Assembly: GCA_022483465.1 (NCBI GenBank)
Contig: JAKVNF010000004.1
Coordinates: 619,713-683,712, forward strand
Length of the DNA stretch: 64,000 nucleotides
Direction of reading: 5' to 3'
From: Lachnospiraceae bacterium
GTDB taxonomy: Bacteria; Bacillota; Clostridia; Lachnospirales; Lachnospiraceae
The notes under the pieces were generated by a model. That model made no database searches, was not told the DNA's origin, and saw only the letters and a program-made list of their open reading frames with translations. This document shows, in pieces, positions 8,698 through 61,729 of the stretch (position 1 is its first letter; every line of letters starts with the position of its first letter). The translations under genes were made by a program, and so were the position numbers.

Positions 8698-9174
8698 ATG
8701 ACCAACTCAGAATATGACCAAGCTCTCACTTTTTGGATTCGCAAGGATCAGGGGGAAAAGAAGATGGATCCGGCAGCTCTTTACGCCTGGATTTCCGCCT
8801 TTCTCTCCTCCCACAGGGTTCTCGCTCTTGCGACCGGGGCAAATGATTACGTGCGCTGCACGCCGCTGGAATACACCTGGCATGAGGATGCCCTTTGGAT
8901 CTTCACGGAGGGCGGGCTCAAGTTTAAGGGGCTGAGAGACAATAAAAACATCGCCGCTGCAATCTTCGACGTGGGCACTACCTTTACCGGCAATCTGAGA
9001 TCCCTGCAGCTTGAGGGGACGGCAGAGGTTGTCGCTCCGGATTCCGTAGAATACAGCAGTGCTGCCGCCTTCCGGAAGATTCCGCTCTCCGCAATCAAAA
9101 AGCTTCCGGAACCGCTCTGGCTCCTGAAGATCACGCCGACGGAGATCACCTGCCTAAATTCCGATTGGCGTTAG
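8698..9174 (+). CDS. Pyridoxamine 5'-phosphate oxidase-like flavin protein, C-terminus clipped by a MITE
   Basis: 158 residues starting at ATG 8698 behind AAAGGAGGAAA. The split-barrel FMN-binding fold is indicated by RVLALATGANDYVRCTPLEY, EDALWIFTEGGLKF and NKNIAAAIFDV. Members reduce or bind flavin-linked small molecules; the substrate here is unknown. The last two residues (WR) and the stop codon come from the MITE inserted at 9167. Joining the sequence across the element restores the frame as LNSDFKNDGFGVRQIWQRG followed by a stop near 9529, so the native protein was 13 residues longer. The missing tail is probably peripheral and the gene may still work. Confidence 0.82.
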   Translation: MTNSEYDQALTFWIRKDQGEKKMDPAALYAWISAFLSSHRVLALATGANDYVRCTPLEYTWHEDALWIFTEGGLKFKGLRDNKNIAAAIFDVGTTFTGNLRSLQLEGTAEVVAPDSVEYSSAAAFRKIPLSAIKKLPEPLWLLKITPTEITCLNSDWR

Positions 9175-9474
9175 TTAAGAAACGGGTTGATAAGCGATCG
9201 CCTAGCATGAGACCACTAATACCTCACTTTGAGCTCGAGCTGGGTACACTCCTATCCGTGCTGTGTTGCATCATGTAACAAAGCATCACCTAGATTGCCT
9301 AAACACATACACTCACTTGCCGAGTATGTGACTATAAATAACAAGATAGGCATTATGCGGAGAAGAAAAGAGCTCCAAATGGGGATTCTATATCTTCATC
9401 GGACATTATCGCGTCGAGAGTTCACCATGGAGGTTGTGGTATGGAACCCATCAACCCGGTTCTTTACTAACGCC
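9167..9474 (+). mobile_element. 308-bp MITE, copy 1, related to the IS1595 element of this window
   Basis: The element begins GGCGTTAGTTAAGAA and ends TTCTTTACTAACGCC, imperfect inverted repeats of roughly 25 bp. It is flanked by the 8-bp target duplication TTCCGATT (9159-9166 and 9475-9482). It is base-for-base the same as the copy at 23937-24244, and the copy at 61304-61611 differs at only a handful of positions. No transposase is encoded. The termini match those of the IS1595 element at 24540-25753, and 8-bp duplications fit that family, so it is best seen as a non-autonomous derivative. An open frame starting at 9229 (TTG) runs out through the right end. Confidence 0.92.
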
Positions 9475-9633
9475 TTCCGATTTCAAGAACGACGGATTTG
9501 GCGTCCGGCAGATCTGGCAGCGCGGATAAAACTCCCCACCAAGGTCCTGAGCCTGTTTTTCACCAGATTTGCTTTCTCACCTTCTGAACATAATAATGAT
9601 TAATGGCGCTTATTTCTGTCATGGTGAGGGCAT

Positions 9634-23625: not shown

Positions 23626-23936
23626 AGCAAAATTTCCAGATAAATCGCCTCCACCCGTAAAACGGGTGGTTCGGGATGCGGGCTATAAGCCCGCTTTACT
23701 AGCCAGCGCCTAAAGACGCTGGCTTTCGCTTTAAAGGCCCTTGGGAGCTTTCGCTCCCTCGGGCTCCGCTCAAGCCTCTTTTGCTTTTATCACCTGGCCG
23801 CCCCTAAAGGGGCGGTTTTTTACGTCCTTTCTTGTGGATCCTTTCCAGGCTTCGCCCCGAAAGGATCCTCGTACTCCTTCACACTCATCTTATCCTGCAG
23901 GATGTCTGCTCTCTCCTGATCCCGGATATACTTCTT

Positions 23937-24244
23937 GGCGTTAGTTAAGAAACGGGTTGATAAGCGATCGCCTAGCATGAGACCACTAATACCTCACTTT
24001 GAGCTCGAGCTGGGTACACTCCTATCCGTGCTGTGTTGCATCATGTAACAAAGCATCACCTAGATTGCCTAAACACATACACTCACTTGCCGAGTATGTG
24101 ACTATAAATAACAAGATAGGCATTATGCGGAGAAGAAAAGAGCTCCAAATGGGGATTCTATATCTTCATCGGACATTATCGCGTCGAGAGTTCACCATGG
24201 AGGTTGTGGTATGGAACCCATCAACCCGGTTCTTTACTAACGCC
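23937..24244 (+). mobile_element. 308-bp MITE, copy 2
   Basis: It has the same ends (GGCGTTAG...CTAACGCC) and the same length as copy 1, with no base difference that I could find. Target duplication is TACTTCTT (23929-23936 and 24245-24252). It interrupts the C-terminal part of the IS200 tnpA. Identity with copy 1 implies recent movement. Confidence 0.92.
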
Positions 24245-24539
24245 TACTTCTTTACCGTCGCATCGTTTAATCCCACCGTGCTGACATAATACCCCTCAGA
24301 CCAAAAGTGCCGGTTCCCAAACTTGTATTTCAGATTTGCGTGCCGGTCAAACATCATGAGCGAACTTTTCCCCTTCAAGTAACCCATAAACGAGGCTACG
24401 CTGATCTTTGGCGGAATGCTTACCAGCATATGCACATGATCTGGCATGAGATGCCCCTCTATGATTTCCACTCCTTTGTATGCGCATAGATCATGCAGTA
24501 TCTCCGCAAGGTCCTTCCTGTATTGATTGTAAATTATTT

Positions 24540-25753
24540 GGCGTTAGTAAGAAAACGGGTTGATAAGCTCCAAAGCATTTTAGCAGAAGTATAAAATATG
24601 CCGTTTTGTACATTCTGCTGTACAACGGCCTTCTCTAACTTGAACTACAATAGTCTTGCCAGGAGGGCAAGACTATGAGCTGCATTGAGCGCATACTGAC
24701 CGAAGCCAGAGATCTTTCCAGGGACGACCTGATTCTTCTTGTTAACAAGCTCATGGAGGGCTTCTCCCATGAGAGTGCAACCTCTTCTCCGAAGAAGATG
24801 ATTGCTCCCCGTTTGGATTGTCCGATCTGCCATTCCAATGCTCATGTTGTTAGGAATGGACACAAACATGGAAAACAGGCATACATCTGCAGGCAATGTG
24901 GAACGTCATTTGTTACAACGAGCAACACTTTGCTCTCAGGCTCACACTTTGGTACTGAGATCTGGACCAAGGTTCTGGAAGAGACGCTCAGGGGGACCTC
25001 TCTGGATAAGACGGTCAAGTCACTTGCCAGCCATGGATGCAAGATCAGCCATAGCAGTCTGTTCTTCATGCGGCATAAGATCATGCTTGCTCTCGAGGAC
25101 ATGCAGGTGGAGCAGCCAGCCACGGTGGAAGATGTCGTGGAAGCGGATGAAACCTACGTTCCGGAGTCCAAAAAAGGTACGAAATTTGGCCCTGATGCCA
25201 GTCGAAAGCCCCGCAAGCGTGGCACTCCCGCATCCAAACGCGGCCTTTCAGACGAGCAGATCTGTATCTGCACCGCAGTACAGCGCAAGACTGGCGATCT
25301 GATCGTGAAATCCGAGAACCGGGCAAGGCCTTCCAGTGCGGATGTTGTTGATATCTATACTGGTCATGTCCAGAAGGGAACACTTTTCCTGACGGACGGC
25401 ATGAATGTGTATCCAAGACTGGGCAAGATCCTGGGAATCACGGTCATGAATGTGAAGAAGGAGTCGGCAAGTTTCTTCAATCTGAACACTGTGAACAACC
25501 TTCACTCCTTTATCAAGCACCGCTATATCGAATATCGCGGCGTGGCTACCAAGTATTTGAACCGTTACAACCTCGTATTCCGGGCAGCGTACAGGCAGAG
25601 GACCACGATTGGGGAACTTGCGGACGCTCTCTTTGCATCCAGGAATCCCAAGAAGGTACACCATTATGGAGATGTTAAGGAGCTCAATCTGCTTGCAATT
25701 TGATGACTACAAGATGCACTTATTGCTTATCAACCCGTTTTCTTACTAACGCC
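24540..25753 (+). mobile_element. Complete IS1595-family insertion sequence
   Basis: 1214 bp, starting GGCGTTAGTAAGAAAACGGG and ending CCCGTTTTCTTACTAACGCC, nearly perfect inverted repeats of about 27 bp. It is flanked by the 8-bp duplication AATTATTT (24532-24539, 25754-25761). It carries one transposase and sits inside the IS200 tnpA. Confidence 0.93.
24675..25703 (+). CDS. IS1595-family DDE transposase
   Basis: 342 residues behind AGGAGGGCAAGACT. The N-terminal zinc ribbon is LDCPICHSNAHVV with YICRQCGTSF; the ISXO2-type catalytic domain starts DVVEADETYVPESKKG (first Asp), has LFLTDGMNVYPRL (second Asp), and the last acidic or Asn site lies in the NLNTVNNLHSFIKHRY segment, typical of the IS1595 DDN/DDE variants. 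It is intact and should act on its own ends and probably on the MITE ends. Confidence 0.9.
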   Translation: MSCIERILTEARDLSRDDLILLVNKLMEGFSHESATSSPKKMIAPRLDCPICHSNAHVVRNGHKHGKQAYICRQCGTSFVTTSNTLLSGSHFGTEIWTKVLEETLRGTSLDKTVKSLASHGCKISHSSLFFMRHKIMLALEDMQVEQPATVEDVVEADETYVPESKKGTKFGPDASRKPRKRGTPASKRGLSDEQICICTAVQRKTGDLIVKSENRARPSSADVVDIYTGHVQKGTLFLTDGMNVYPRLGKILGITVMNVKKESASFFNLNTVNNLHSFIKHRYIEYRGVATKYLNRYNLVFRAAYRQRTTIGELADALFASRNPKKVHHYGDVKELNLLAI

Positions 25754-25942
25754 AATTATTTTTCGCCTATACTTCGGAGTGAAGACGATATGGTATTTGC
25801 ACAACCATTTTGTGTGTGCTGCACTATTAGCCTTCGGCATCTAAATCACCTTTCCTTTCATCAATGGTGGCTTGAGCACCTCTATTGTAAGGAAAGGTGA
25901 TTTATTTGTATAACCTCTTACTCTCACCCGCACAGCGGGTGG

Positions 25943-58956: not shown

Positions 58957-59068
58957 ATTATACTTACCCATAATAATGAAACACAATGGTGTAATATGTG
59001 GTCTCGCGTCCACATGAATCTAATTGTGCACTTTTACGTAGATCTGTTGTGTGCCTTCAGCTGGCGTT
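58957..59068 (+). repeat. 112-bp direct repeat, left copy (target duplication of the IS1634-type element)
   Basis: The stretch from ATTATACTTACCC to CAGCTGGCGTT recurs exactly at 61618-61729 on the other side of the element. It was part of the leader upstream of the lacI-type gene. Confidence 0.85.
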
Positions 59069-59212
59069 CCGGGTCTTAAACAGTTGGGCACATTTTTGGG
59101 AGGCTTCGGCCTCTCTTTTTTGTTGTGGTTGAGCCATTCTTGGCTGTCAAATTTCTGCGATTATTATGTTGTATGTGTTGTATGTCTAGGGCGCATGTGT
59201 TATACTTCGTTT

Positions 59213-61183
59213 ATGAAACTATACTTTGACAAGAGACTGAAAGATCCTACCTACTATATTCAAAAAGGTTACCGGAATGGTTCTAAAGTAACCTGTAAAA
59301 ATGTAAAGATTATTGGAAAGCATTCAGAATTACTAAAAATCACAGATGATCCATTATCCTATGCAAAAGAGCAAGTCCGTCTAATGAATGAAAAGGAGAA
59401 GAGCGGTCTGCAAAGCATAGACCTTCATCTTGATTTCAATGAATTGATTCAAAACAACGCAGAAAAATCGATTGCACCTTTATACACGAGAAATGTCGGC
59501 TATTTTTATCTTCAGCATATATATCGCCAGCTAAGCATCAATGAATTCTTCAAAAATGCTTGCAGCGGCAATAAGATCACATTTGATATCGACCGTGTTA
59601 ACAGATTCCTTGTTTATGACCGTATATTGAGGCCTGGATCCAAGCTCCATACATGGCAAAATAAGGACTGGTATTACGAGGAGCCAGATTTCGAGTATCA
59701 GCATATTATGCGGACCATGGATATCCTTGAGGACAATTACGCCGAATACATCAGTTGGCTTTTTAAGTACAGTAACAACATCGTTAAGAGAGATACATCT
59801 CGTTGCTATTACGACTGTACAAATTATTACTGCGAGACTGAAACAAATGATGATAATTATGTTGATGAAGTGACCGGAGAGGAAATAAAAGGACTGCGCG
59901 AGTACGGAAAGTCGAAAGAAAACCGTCCCAACCCGATTGTAGAAATGGGATTATTTATGGATAATCAAGGCATACCAATGTCAATGTGCATTCATCCAGG
60001 AAATACAAATGAACAGGTTACCGCTATTCCTTTGGAAAAAGAACTGATCAAAATGTTCAGAGATGCTGATCATGATAATAACGGTTCTTTCATATATGTT
60101 GCAGATGGTGGACTTGGGTCGACATGGATTAGACAGTTCAATTCCATGGGCGGAAGGTGCTTTATTGTCACTCAGTCAATTAAGAAAATGTCAGAAGTTA
60201 TGCAGAATTCTGTATTCAATGATTGCGATTATTGGATTCCAACATCCGATAACGATGGTAAGAAGGATAAAGATGGAAGGACAATTGTTCAAAGTGATCC
60301 CATATCAATAGAATTTCTAAAAACATTTGATAAGAATGATAAAGATAATCTTAGATATTATAATTCGATGGCGTATAAAGTAATTGACGCTGATAATCTT
60401 ATTGATCTTGGGCTCACAGAAACAAAGATATGCAAGAACAGAAAAGCAAGGAGTGTAAAAGTTAAAGGTACTCTTAAGCAGAAAATAATAATCAGATTCT
60501 CACGAAAATATATGGAATACCAAAGGTATATCCGGAATCGTCAGGTAGAACGTGCCAAGAATCTCATCAGAAAATGTGATCCGGATGAACTGAAGAAAAG
60601 CCAGAATGACGCAAAGCGATTCATAAAGAAAACAACTACCGCAAAAGATGGTGGGGAAGTGCAGGTGTCATACTCTATTGATACAGACCGCATCGCGGAG
60701 GAAGAAAAGTATGATGGGTTTTATGCTCTCGCCACAAATTTGCAAATAGATATGATAAGTGCACCGGATAATCCGCTAAAATCGAAGCCTGATCTTACAG
60801 ATGTACTTGAAATAGTCTCTATCAGCGAAACACGCAACAAAATTGAAGAATGCTTTAGGATCATGAAAACAAATTTTGAAGCTCGACCGATTTATCATAG
60901 AAAGCACGAGCATATAATTTCACATTTTATGATATGTTACACCGCGCTTCTCATCTATAGGCTTCTTGAGATCAAAGTTAATCAAAGCCGCTATCATTGC
61001 ACGACGCAGGATATTATAGAGACATTAAACCATATGATCGTCGGAAATGTAGAGGATCAATATTACATTTCATTATACGGAGGCTGTACCACGCTGACAG
61101 CGTTGGAGGAAACGTTCAATGGTGGGCTAAATCACAAGCGATATTATCCGAAAACATTAAATAAACTGTCGAGAAGTTTTTAA
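59213..61183 (+). CDS. IS1634-family DDE transposase
   Basis: 656 residues from ATG 59213 (an in-frame TTG at 59051 would add a poorly supported N-terminus). It has the domain order of IS1634 transposases: an N-terminal helical part with SNNIVKRDTSRCYYDCTNYY, a DDE core with PIVEMGLFMDNQGIPMSM, FIYVADGGLGSTWIRQF (second Asp) and the late Glu in SISETRNKIEECFRIMKTNF. Codon use is distinctly AT-rich compared with the host genes. It is intact. Confidence 0.88.
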   Translation: MKLYFDKRLKDPTYYIQKGYRNGSKVTCKNVKIIGKHSELLKITDDPLSYAKEQVRLMNEKEKSGLQSIDLHLDFNELIQNNAEKSIAPLYTRNVGYFYLQHIYRQLSINEFFKNACSGNKITFDIDRVNRFLVYDRILRPGSKLHTWQNKDWYYEEPDFEYQHIMRTMDILEDNYAEYISWLFKYSNNIVKRDTSRCYYDCTNYYCETETNDDNYVDEVTGEEIKGLREYGKSKENRPNPIVEMGLFMDNQGIPMSMCIHPGNTNEQVTAIPLEKELIKMFRDADHDNNGSFIYVADGGLGSTWIRQFNSMGGRCFIVTQSIKKMSEVMQNSVFNDCDYWIPTSDNDGKKDKDGRTIVQSDPISIEFLKTFDKNDKDNLRYYNSMAYKVIDADNLIDLGLTETKICKNRKARSVKVKGTLKQKIIIRFSRKYMEYQRYIRNRQVERAKNLIRKCDPDELKKSQNDAKRFIKKTTTAKDGGEVQVSYSIDTDRIAEEEKYDGFYALATNLQIDMISAPDNPLKSKPDLTDVLEIVSISETRNKIEECFRIMKTNFEARPIYHRKHEHIISHFMICYTALLIYRLLEIKVNQSRYHCTTQDIIETLNHMIVGNVEDQYYISLYGGCTTLTALEETFNGGLNHKRYYPKTLNKLSRSF

Positions 61184-61276: not shown

Positions 61277-61303
61277 GGCATTTTAAAGTGTTTAAAACCG
61301 GAT

Positions 61304-61611
61304 GGCGTTAGTAAAGAACCGGGTTGACGGGTTCCATACCACAACCTCCATGGTGAACTCTCGACGCGATAATGTCTGATGAAGATATAGAATCCCCATT
61401 TGGAGCTCTTTTCTTCTCTGCATAATGCCTATCTTGTTATTTATAGTCACATGCTCGGCAAGTGGGTGTATGCTTTTAGGCAATCTAGGTGATGCTTTGT
61501 TACATGATGCAACACAGCACGGATAGGAGTGTACCCAGCTCGAGCTCAAAGTGAGGGATTAGTGGTCTCATGCTAGGCGATCGCTTATCAACCCGTTTCT
61601 TAACTAACGCC
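61304..61611 (-). mobile_element. 308-bp MITE, copy 3 (reverse orientation)
   Basis: Same ends and length as the other copies, with about eight base changes. The target duplication AACCGGAT (61296-61303, 61612-61619) straddles the junction between the IS1634-type right end (CCGG) and the 112-bp repeat (AT...). So it arrived after the IS1634-type element. Confidence 0.92.
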
Positions 61612-61617
61612 AACCGG

Positions 61618-61729
61618 ATTATACTTACCCATAATAATGAAACACAATGGTGTAATATGTGGTCTCGCGTCCACATGAATCTAATTGTGCACTTTTACGT
61701 AGATCTGTTGTGTGCCTTCAGCTGGCGTT
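61618..61729 (+). repeat. 112-bp direct repeat, right copy
   Basis: Exact repeat of 58957-59068. The sequence to the right (CGTGATCGTAG...) is the original continuation of the region. Confidence 0.85.

What the first reader, a model, noticed from the sequence alone, without database searches (positions are those of the whole stretch)
9167..9474. A 308-bp MITE family very probably mobilised by an IS1595 transposase
Three elements (9167-9474, 23937-24244, 61304-61611) are all 308 bp, share termini GGCGTTAG...CTAACGCC and extended inverted repeats, and each has its own 8-bp duplication (TTCCGATT, TACTTCTT, AACCGGAT). The autonomous IS1595 element at 24540-25753 has nearly the same terminal repeats and an 8-bp duplication (AATTATTT). 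Two MITE copies look identical, implying recent movement. This MITE may be undescribed.
Basis: partly seen in the sequence, partly recalled or inferred. Interest (0 to 1): 0.75.

Follow-up and report, generated by a model that had tools for sequence, protein, structure and literature searches.

The report
High-copy MITE moved by IS1595 transposases
A 308-base, gene-less mobile DNA element has recently multiplied to more than a hundred copies in one bacterial genome, most likely by borrowing the transposase of related IS1595-family insertion sequences; it seems undescribed but is a known kind of genetic parasite.

Summary
Observation exact: three 308-bp elements and a 1,214-bp IS ("IS-alpha"), each with the stated 8-bp duplication. 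Genome-wide there are at least 115 MITE copies (69 A, 46 B) and 46 IS copies, about 2.15% of 4.30 Mb. MITE and IS share one integration signature: 8-bp, less often 9-bp, duplications of the form WW-N4/5-WW (98 of 100 MITEs, 39 of 41 ISs with a duplication; background 4.3%). Two insertion sites have empty counterparts in the genome. A 340-bp unit with a MITE left end and an IS right end has its own duplication, suggesting that one transposase handles both.

Amendment: a second IS1595 sibling, IS-gamma (72% identical, two identical intact copies), has a left tip that matches both MITE ends better (23 of 24, versus 21 of 24). The ends probably came from a gamma-like element; IS-alpha is the likelier present mobiliser. 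The core matches neither IS.

IS1595-linked MITEs are known (Haloquadratum; PMC3852290), so this is a new member of a known kind. The MITE was found in no other genome or collection searched.

The parts
9167..9474 (+). MITE copy 1 (subfamily A, 308 bp, non-coding)
   Evidence: identical to 40 listed copies elsewhere in the genome; this sequence makes up 58 of 107 recovered placements
9159..9166 (.). left 8-bp target duplication TTCCGATT of MITE 1 (right copy 9475-9482)
23937..24244 (+). MITE copy 2 (subfamily A); abuts an IS200/IS605-type tnpA remnant (frame 24244-24471, - strand) that ends at the MITE edge
   Evidence: NF033573 91 bits against 55, Y1_Tnp 83.5 bits against 23
23929..23936 (.). 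left 8-bp duplication TACTTCTT of MITE 2 (right copy 24245-24252)
61304..61611 (-). MITE copy 3 (subfamily B, 8 differences from A)
61296..61303 (.). left 8-bp duplication AACCGGAT of MITE 3 (right copy 61612-61619)
24540..25753 (+). autonomous IS1595-family element 'IS-alpha' (1,214 bp, 29-bp perfect TIRs; 46 copies in the genome)
24675..25703 (+). IS1595 transposase gene, 342 aa, zinc-binding N-terminal domain plus DDE_Tnp_IS1595 domain; candidate catalytic D158, D241, H277, K281
24532..24539 (.). left 8-bp duplication AATTATTT of the IS (right copy 25754-25761)

Best explanation
The 308-bp element is a non-autonomous MITE. Its two roughly 25-30-bp ends are recognised by an IS1595-family transposase made elsewhere in the same genome, which inserts it at WW-N4/5-WW sites and duplicates 8 bp (90 of 100) or 9 bp (10 of 100). 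Shown: anatomy, copy number, duplications, shared target rule, empty counterparts, shared tips. Inferred: movement in trans; that the present supplier is mainly IS-alpha (about 0.7); and that the ends descend from an IS-gamma-like relative whose interior was replaced by unrelated DNA (a 'type II' MITE in the terms of PMC6382973). The burst looks very recent: 58 of 107 recovered placements are letter-identical, though gene conversion could add to that. The confidence below is for the core claim (a MITE moved by an IS1595-family transposase of this genome), not for alpha over gamma.
For: Copy number: 69 A + 46 B; 121 left-tip matches at 3 mismatches or fewer, a pattern that by my count also admits IS-gamma left tips. 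Duplications: 90 with 8 bp, 10 with 9 bp and 3 none among 103 full-length 308-bp placements; IS-alpha 35 with 8 bp, 6 with 9 bp, 4 none, among 45 placements; share of 9-bp not different, p=0.56. Target rule: 98/100 MITEs, 39/41 ISs, background 4.3% of window positions; also 11 of 11 duplications readable around related ISs (6 of these from one Dorea genome). Empty counterparts: intact IS-alpha has ATTGCTTA once, the MITE-hit copy has it on both sides of the MITEs; intact MITE has AATAACAA once, the nested one twice. Units that appear to have moved: 340-bp MITE-left/IS-alpha-right with TATAAAAA on both sides; 624-bp MITE-in-MITE at two loci with duplications TTTCGAAAA and TTCAAAAA. Two MITE copies carry the IS-alpha-type left tip, one with a 9-bp duplication.
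Against: IS-alpha tips match the MITE ends less well (21/24) than the IS-gamma left tip (23/24), so alpha may not be the main mobiliser. The 340-bp unit could instead arise by a jump of a MITE-carrying IS-alpha followed by deletion through the shared GGCGTTAGT at the two left tips; the two hybrid-tip MITEs show that tips can recombine or convert. In that unit the MITE beside the IS right end is of type B', whereas in the surviving array it is B'', so the array as it stands is not the exact source. No movement was observed directly, and no sister strain was at hand to score empty orthologous sites.
Confidence: 0.93

Rival explanations
1. IS-gamma, not IS-alpha, supplies the transposase; IS-alpha's spread is coincidental. 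(A variant within the core claim, so its odds are not to be added to it.)
For: Gamma left tip matches MITE left 23/24 and MITE right 23/24, against 21/24 for alpha. Two identical copies with an intact 336-aa ORF, one flanked by the duplication TTCTCGAA.
Against: Gamma's right tip matches less well: 19 and 21 of 24 in the intact copies, 21 and 23 in a longer copy. Only two identical intact copies, two longer copies with shortened frames and five further partial matches, against 46 alpha copies. The 340-bp MITE/alpha unit and the alpha-type left tip on two MITEs link the MITE to alpha ends.
Confidence: 0.22
2. The MITE is an internal deletion derivative of an IS1595 element (type I MITE).
For: Terminal 25-30 bp match IS-gamma-like ends, 29/30 for the left end of the Fusobacterium naviforme element.
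Against: blastn with 7-base words finds no match of the core to IS-alpha or IS-gamma beyond chance-level stretches (best internal E about 1).
Confidence: 0.12
3. Copies spread mainly by homologous duplication of larger segments rather than transposition.
For: Tandem arrays exist, and the 4-copy array alternates B' B'' B' B'', as if a dimer had been duplicated. IS copies with exchanged flanks point to recombination.
Against: 100 of 103 full-length placements have their own duplication, with 85 distinct sequences among 91 8-mers.
Confidence: 0.02

Closest known systems
IS1595-linked MITE of Haloquadratum walsbyi (paired with ISHwa6; table row in PMC3852290, passages seen)
   Same: Shares ends with an IS1595-family IS, long inverted repeats (25), 8-bp duplications
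   Different: 165 bp and 7 copies there, in an archaeon; here 308 bp and at least 115 copies, some 9-bp duplications, tandem and nested forms and a mixed IS/MITE unit
IS1595 insertion-sequence family (description in PMC8101967, passages seen)
   Same: IS-alpha and IS-gamma: single transposase with N-terminal zinc-binding domain and DDE_Tnp_IS1595 domain, 8-bp duplications; the ends start with GG
   Different: The MITE carries no transposase. The IS-alpha clade shows D-D-H-K at the candidate catalytic positions; that this resembles the ISSod11 subgroup is recalled, not tested
MITEAba12 of Acinetobacter (PMC6382973, passages seen)
   Same: Short, non-coding, proposed to be moved in trans by a co-resident IS
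   Different: 113-bp consensus, proposed parent ISAba12 with 16-bp TIRs and 9-bp duplications, at most 22 copies in one strain there
IS-gamma-like element of Fusobacterium naviforme ATCC 25832 (L203)
   Same: Left tip 29/30 identical to the MITE left end
   Different: 1,217-bp IS whose longest frame is 230 aa; no MITE found in that genome

Membership tests
MITE (miniature inverted-repeat transposable element) | Short, no transposase gene, terminal inverted repeats | tested here: met
   308 bp; the two ends pair with each other over about 25 bp; the only frame of 90 aa or more in copy 1 starts inside it and runs out into the flank
MITE (miniature inverted-repeat transposable element) | Multiple dispersed copies with target duplications | tested here: met
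   115 or more copies; 100 of 103 full-length placements with 8- or 9-bp duplications
MITE (miniature inverted-repeat transposable element) | Moves in trans using a co-resident transposase | tested here: inconclusive
IS1595 family (for IS-alpha and IS-gamma) | Transposase with DDE_Tnp_IS1595 domain above curated cut-off | tested here: met
   NF033547 113.6 and 110.6 bits against 75; PF12762 44.9 and 46.4 against 27
IS1595 family (for IS-alpha and IS-gamma) | N-terminal zinc-binding domain | tested here: met
   NF050000 42.5 and 38 bits against 28
IS1595 family (for IS-alpha and IS-gamma) | Usually 8-bp target duplications | tested here: met
   IS-alpha: 35 with 8 bp, 6 with 9 bp, 4 none of 45 placements. 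IS-gamma: 8 bp (TTCTCGAA) at one of the two identical copies, none at the other; the two longer copies have TTTTGAAAA (9 bp) on both sides
IS1595 subgroup (ISSod11-like or other) | Subgroup assignment by comparison with ISfinder entries | not testable with these tools
   ISfinder not available; D-D-H-K positions seen, subgroup name recalled

The most novel reading that the evidence does not exclude
One MITE family exploits two sibling IS1595 transposases: its ends come from a gamma-type element while the alpha-type element now amplifies it. End mixing (MITE-left/IS-right units, MITEs with an alpha-type tip) and dimer-driven tandem arrays keep generating new mobile units, so the genome is a live record of an IS/MITE contest in the IS1595 family.
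Probability: 0.35. Interest if true: 0.5.

Novelty: new member of a known kind. Interest (0 to 1): 0.36.

Why it matters
It gives a large, clean natural data set for IS1595 transposition: 141 insertions with duplications (100 MITE, 41 IS) define the target rule WW-N4/5-WW and an 8/9-bp alternation. The same rule held in 11 of 11 readable duplications of relatives (AT-rich hosts, six from one genome, no background computed there). Mixed-end units suggest which ends one transposase can pair. It also shows a MITE out-copying its helper (115 to 46) in a fresh burst with only mild avoidance of genes (47 of 96 MITE sites spanned by frames of 200 codons or more, against 59.6% of matched control sites, p=0.037; for the IS 20 of 35 against 64.1%, p=0.38). 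It does not change the general picture of bacterial MITEs.

Tried and rejected
Internal RNA or regulatory role: the single strand folds better than shuffles (z -4.7 as DNA and as + RNA, -3.8 as - RNA), which the paired ends may largely explain; no Rfam family in copy 1 (one sub-threshold hit just outside it) and no promoter- or terminator-like site in 9160-9480. Rejected as unsupported.

Target preference for terminators: 6 of 96 MITE sites lie near a terminator-like hairpin against 1.9% of controls (p=0.009); IS 2 of 35 against 2.1% (p=0.17). Small numbers and a home-made scan; not pressed.

Orientation bias relative to host frames: MITE 23 same, 24 opposite; IS 12 and 8. None seen.

Gene avoidance at other thresholds: MITE 54 of 96 against 65.8% (150 codons, p=0.053), 32 of 96 against 44.4% (300 codons, p=0.031); an earlier run with 94 sites gave the same picture. 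Mechanical frames stand in for genes.

Clustering: MITEs are spread over the four contigs as expected by length (p=0.31); within contigs 11 of 12 tests are compatible with uniform, type B on C2 is not (p=0.001). Not pursued.

Presence elsewhere: no match in the 61 other genomes of the genus that are held. Of 397 family genomes (own included), only the own genome and one 24-bp hit that I take as chance. Exact pieces absent from genome contigs and viral contigs; no match in plasmids or phages; these tools warn that the own or very near records may be left out. No MITE in the genomes holding L201, L203, L225 or L043; the matches in two of the four are IS ends. The genus genomes are drafts of 30 to 660 contigs, which tend to lose such repeats, so absence there is weak evidence. 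No transposase relative confirmed in viral contigs; no IS-alpha match in plasmids.

Relatives dropped before the 11-of-11 count: elements whose ends were seen but that had no readable duplication (for example L203, L205, L208, L215, L216, L217, L220), and loci in which no pair of ends was recognised.

Literature: searches. Passages only were seen of PMC3852290, PMC11578231, PMC9208149, PMC9022542, PMC8101967, PMC3119063, PMC6382973, PMC5771137 and PMC4853749. No passage seen describes this element. PMC11578231, PMC5771137 and PMC4853749 concern other MITEs, PMC9208149 IS-gene neighbourhoods. One search translated IS-gamma in a wrong frame; replace it.

Full report
What was claimed and what is there. 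The three 308-bp elements, their ends, their 8-bp duplications and the 1,214-bp IS (here IS-alpha) are exactly as described. Copies 1 and 2 are identical; copy 3 is inverted and differs at 8 positions. The IS encodes a 342-aa transposase that passes the NCBIfam IS1595 cut-off and Pfam DDE_Tnp_IS1595. In an alignment of 16 sequences, D158, D241, H277 and K281 are kept in those that align well there; several others are decayed or partial and do not align.

Scale. The window lies in a 4,300,133-base genome in four contigs. Two internal 30-mers that separate types A and B match 69 and 46 times, so at least 115 MITE copies exist. The left tip with up to 3 mismatches matches 121 times; by my count that pattern also admits IS-gamma left tips. 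The IS is present 46 times by a transposase-gene 30-mer (45 exact, 1 with a mismatch). Together they make about 92.6 kb, 2.15% of the genome. From the DNA held I recovered 107 distinct MITE placements: 58 identical type A, 22 identical type B, 16 of a type B' and 3 of B'', two A copies with an alpha-type left tip, single variants, one older copy (L129, 15-18 differences) and nested or mixed units.

Integration signature. Of 103 full-length 308-bp placements, 90 have 8-bp and 10 have 9-bp flanking duplications; 3 have none: the MITE inside the 340-bp unit (L131), the hybrid-tip copy L127, and L098, whose flanks differ by one base. For the IS, 35 have 8 bp, 6 have 9 bp and 4 none among 45 placements; the 46th copy lacks its left part. 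The first two and last two bases of the duplication are all A or T in 98 of 100 MITEs and 39 of 41 ISs; this pattern occurs at 4.3% of window positions. Related ISs obey it in 11 of 11 readable duplications, six of them from Dorea sp. 5-2. MITE and IS therefore share both target rule and duplication length. Two sites have single-copy empty counterparts in the same genome: the MITE array inside an IS-alpha (ATTGCTTA) and the MITE inside a MITE (AATAACAA).

Units that mix or nest. At C3:522817-523156 (L131) a 340-bp unit runs from a MITE left end to an IS-alpha right end and has TATAAAAA on both sides. A like arrangement survives at C1:1014618-1017095 (L142), where MITEs sit 24 bp inside the right end of an IS-alpha; there the MITE next to the IS end is B'', in L131 it is B', so L142 as it stands is not the exact source. 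The simplest reading is that one transposase paired a MITE end with an IS-alpha end. An alternative in two steps (a MITE-carrying IS-alpha jumps, then loses its body by recombination between the two left tips, which share GGCGTTAGT) cannot be excluded. Two MITEs carry the alpha-type left tip (L111 with a 9-bp duplication, L127 without), which shows that tips are exchanged. A 624-bp MITE-in-MITE unit is found at two loci with different duplications, so it probably moved as one piece. Two tandem arrays have the duplication as spacer: 4 copies at L142, 2 at L107. The 4-copy array alternates B', B'', B', B'', which points to duplication of a dimer rather than four separate insertions.

Which transposase. 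Next to one IS-alpha copy I found a second IS1595 element, IS-gamma: 1,187 bp, 72% identical, 336-aa intact ORF, two identical copies, two 1,204-bp copies with shortened frames and five further partial matches. In the first 24 bases its left tip matches MITE left 23 and MITE right 23; IS-alpha matches 21 and 21. Gamma's right tip does less well (19 and 21; 21 and 23 in a 1,204-bp copy). An 83%-identical relative in Fusobacterium naviforme ATCC 25832 matches 29 of 30 at the MITE left end. The MITE ends thus look gamma-derived. The core matches neither IS. I favour present mobilisation mainly by IS-alpha because of its abundance, its identical copies (16 and 18 in two sublineages), its stop-free frames (34 of 34 scored) and the mixed-end units; gamma is a live rival.

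Age and host effect. Identity among 58 type-A placements suggests a very recent burst, with the caveat that gene conversion can also homogenise copies. Copies are spread over contigs as expected by length. Frames of 200 codons or more span 47 of 96 empty MITE sites against 59.6% of matched control sites, p=0.037; for the IS, 20 of 35 against 64.1%, p=0.38: at most mild avoidance of genes. In the window, copy 2 abuts an IS200-type tnpA remnant, and copy 1 lies at the 3' end of a pyridoxamine-oxidase-like frame that now ends inside the MITE tip.

Distribution. The MITE was found in no other genome or collection searched. IS-alpha is present with one base change in 1,214 in a bioreactor MAG, Eubacterium sp. 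UW_Xyl_LCO2, listed under g__Eubacterium_H in PMC9022542 (passage seen). Its flanks have 44% and 48% G+C, and their only similarity to the own-genome DNA held (0.64 Mb) lies in the right flank, which holds an IS110-type element, at 87-91%. This suggests recent horizontal transfer, though mis-binning of that contig is not excluded. In the genus, only 2 of the other 61 genomes have a transposase relative at E 1e-30 or better, at 45-47% identity.

Known kind. PMC3852290 lists a 165-bp, 7-copy MITE paired with the IS1595-family ISHwa6 (passage seen). PMC3119063 states that Haloquadratum MITEs are unrelated to their helper outside the terminal repeats (passage seen). PMC8101967 describes 8- or 9-bp duplications and GG ends for the related eukaryotic Merlin elements, and 8-bp duplications and a zinc finger for most IS1595 groups (passages seen). 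The present element fits this kind. Its distinction is copy number, freshness and the mixed, nested and tandem forms.

Noticed in passing
L155 (C1:635110) and L177 (C3:424363): Two IS-alpha copies appear to have exchanged flanks (ATCCGGAA and TTCTGAT halves), pointing to rearrangement by recombination between IS copies.
   Followed up: partly
L201, contig JAJGAH010000092.1: IS-alpha with 1 difference in 1,214 bases in a Eubacterium_H bioreactor MAG; possible recent horizontal transfer.
   Followed up: partly
L189, C1:1349356-1352595: An IS-alpha copy interrupted by a roughly 2-kb insert with what looks like a 6-bp duplication; the whole unit keeps its own 8-bp duplication.
   Followed up: no
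IS-alpha copies, element positions 801-1087: The two abundant IS-alpha sublineages differ by 17 bases, all within 801-1087, as if a patch had been exchanged.
   Followed up: no
window 59051-61183: A 710-aa IS1634-family transposase frame lies next to MITE copy 3 (NF033559, 320 bits).
   Followed up: no
L190, C4:476847: A diverged IS-alpha relative (88% over 506 bases) broken off by other sequence.
   Followed up: no
L192, L194 and L195, right flanks of IS-gamma: Three IS-gamma copies share the flank TTTTGAAAA..., so they seem to sit in a larger repeat.
   Followed up: no
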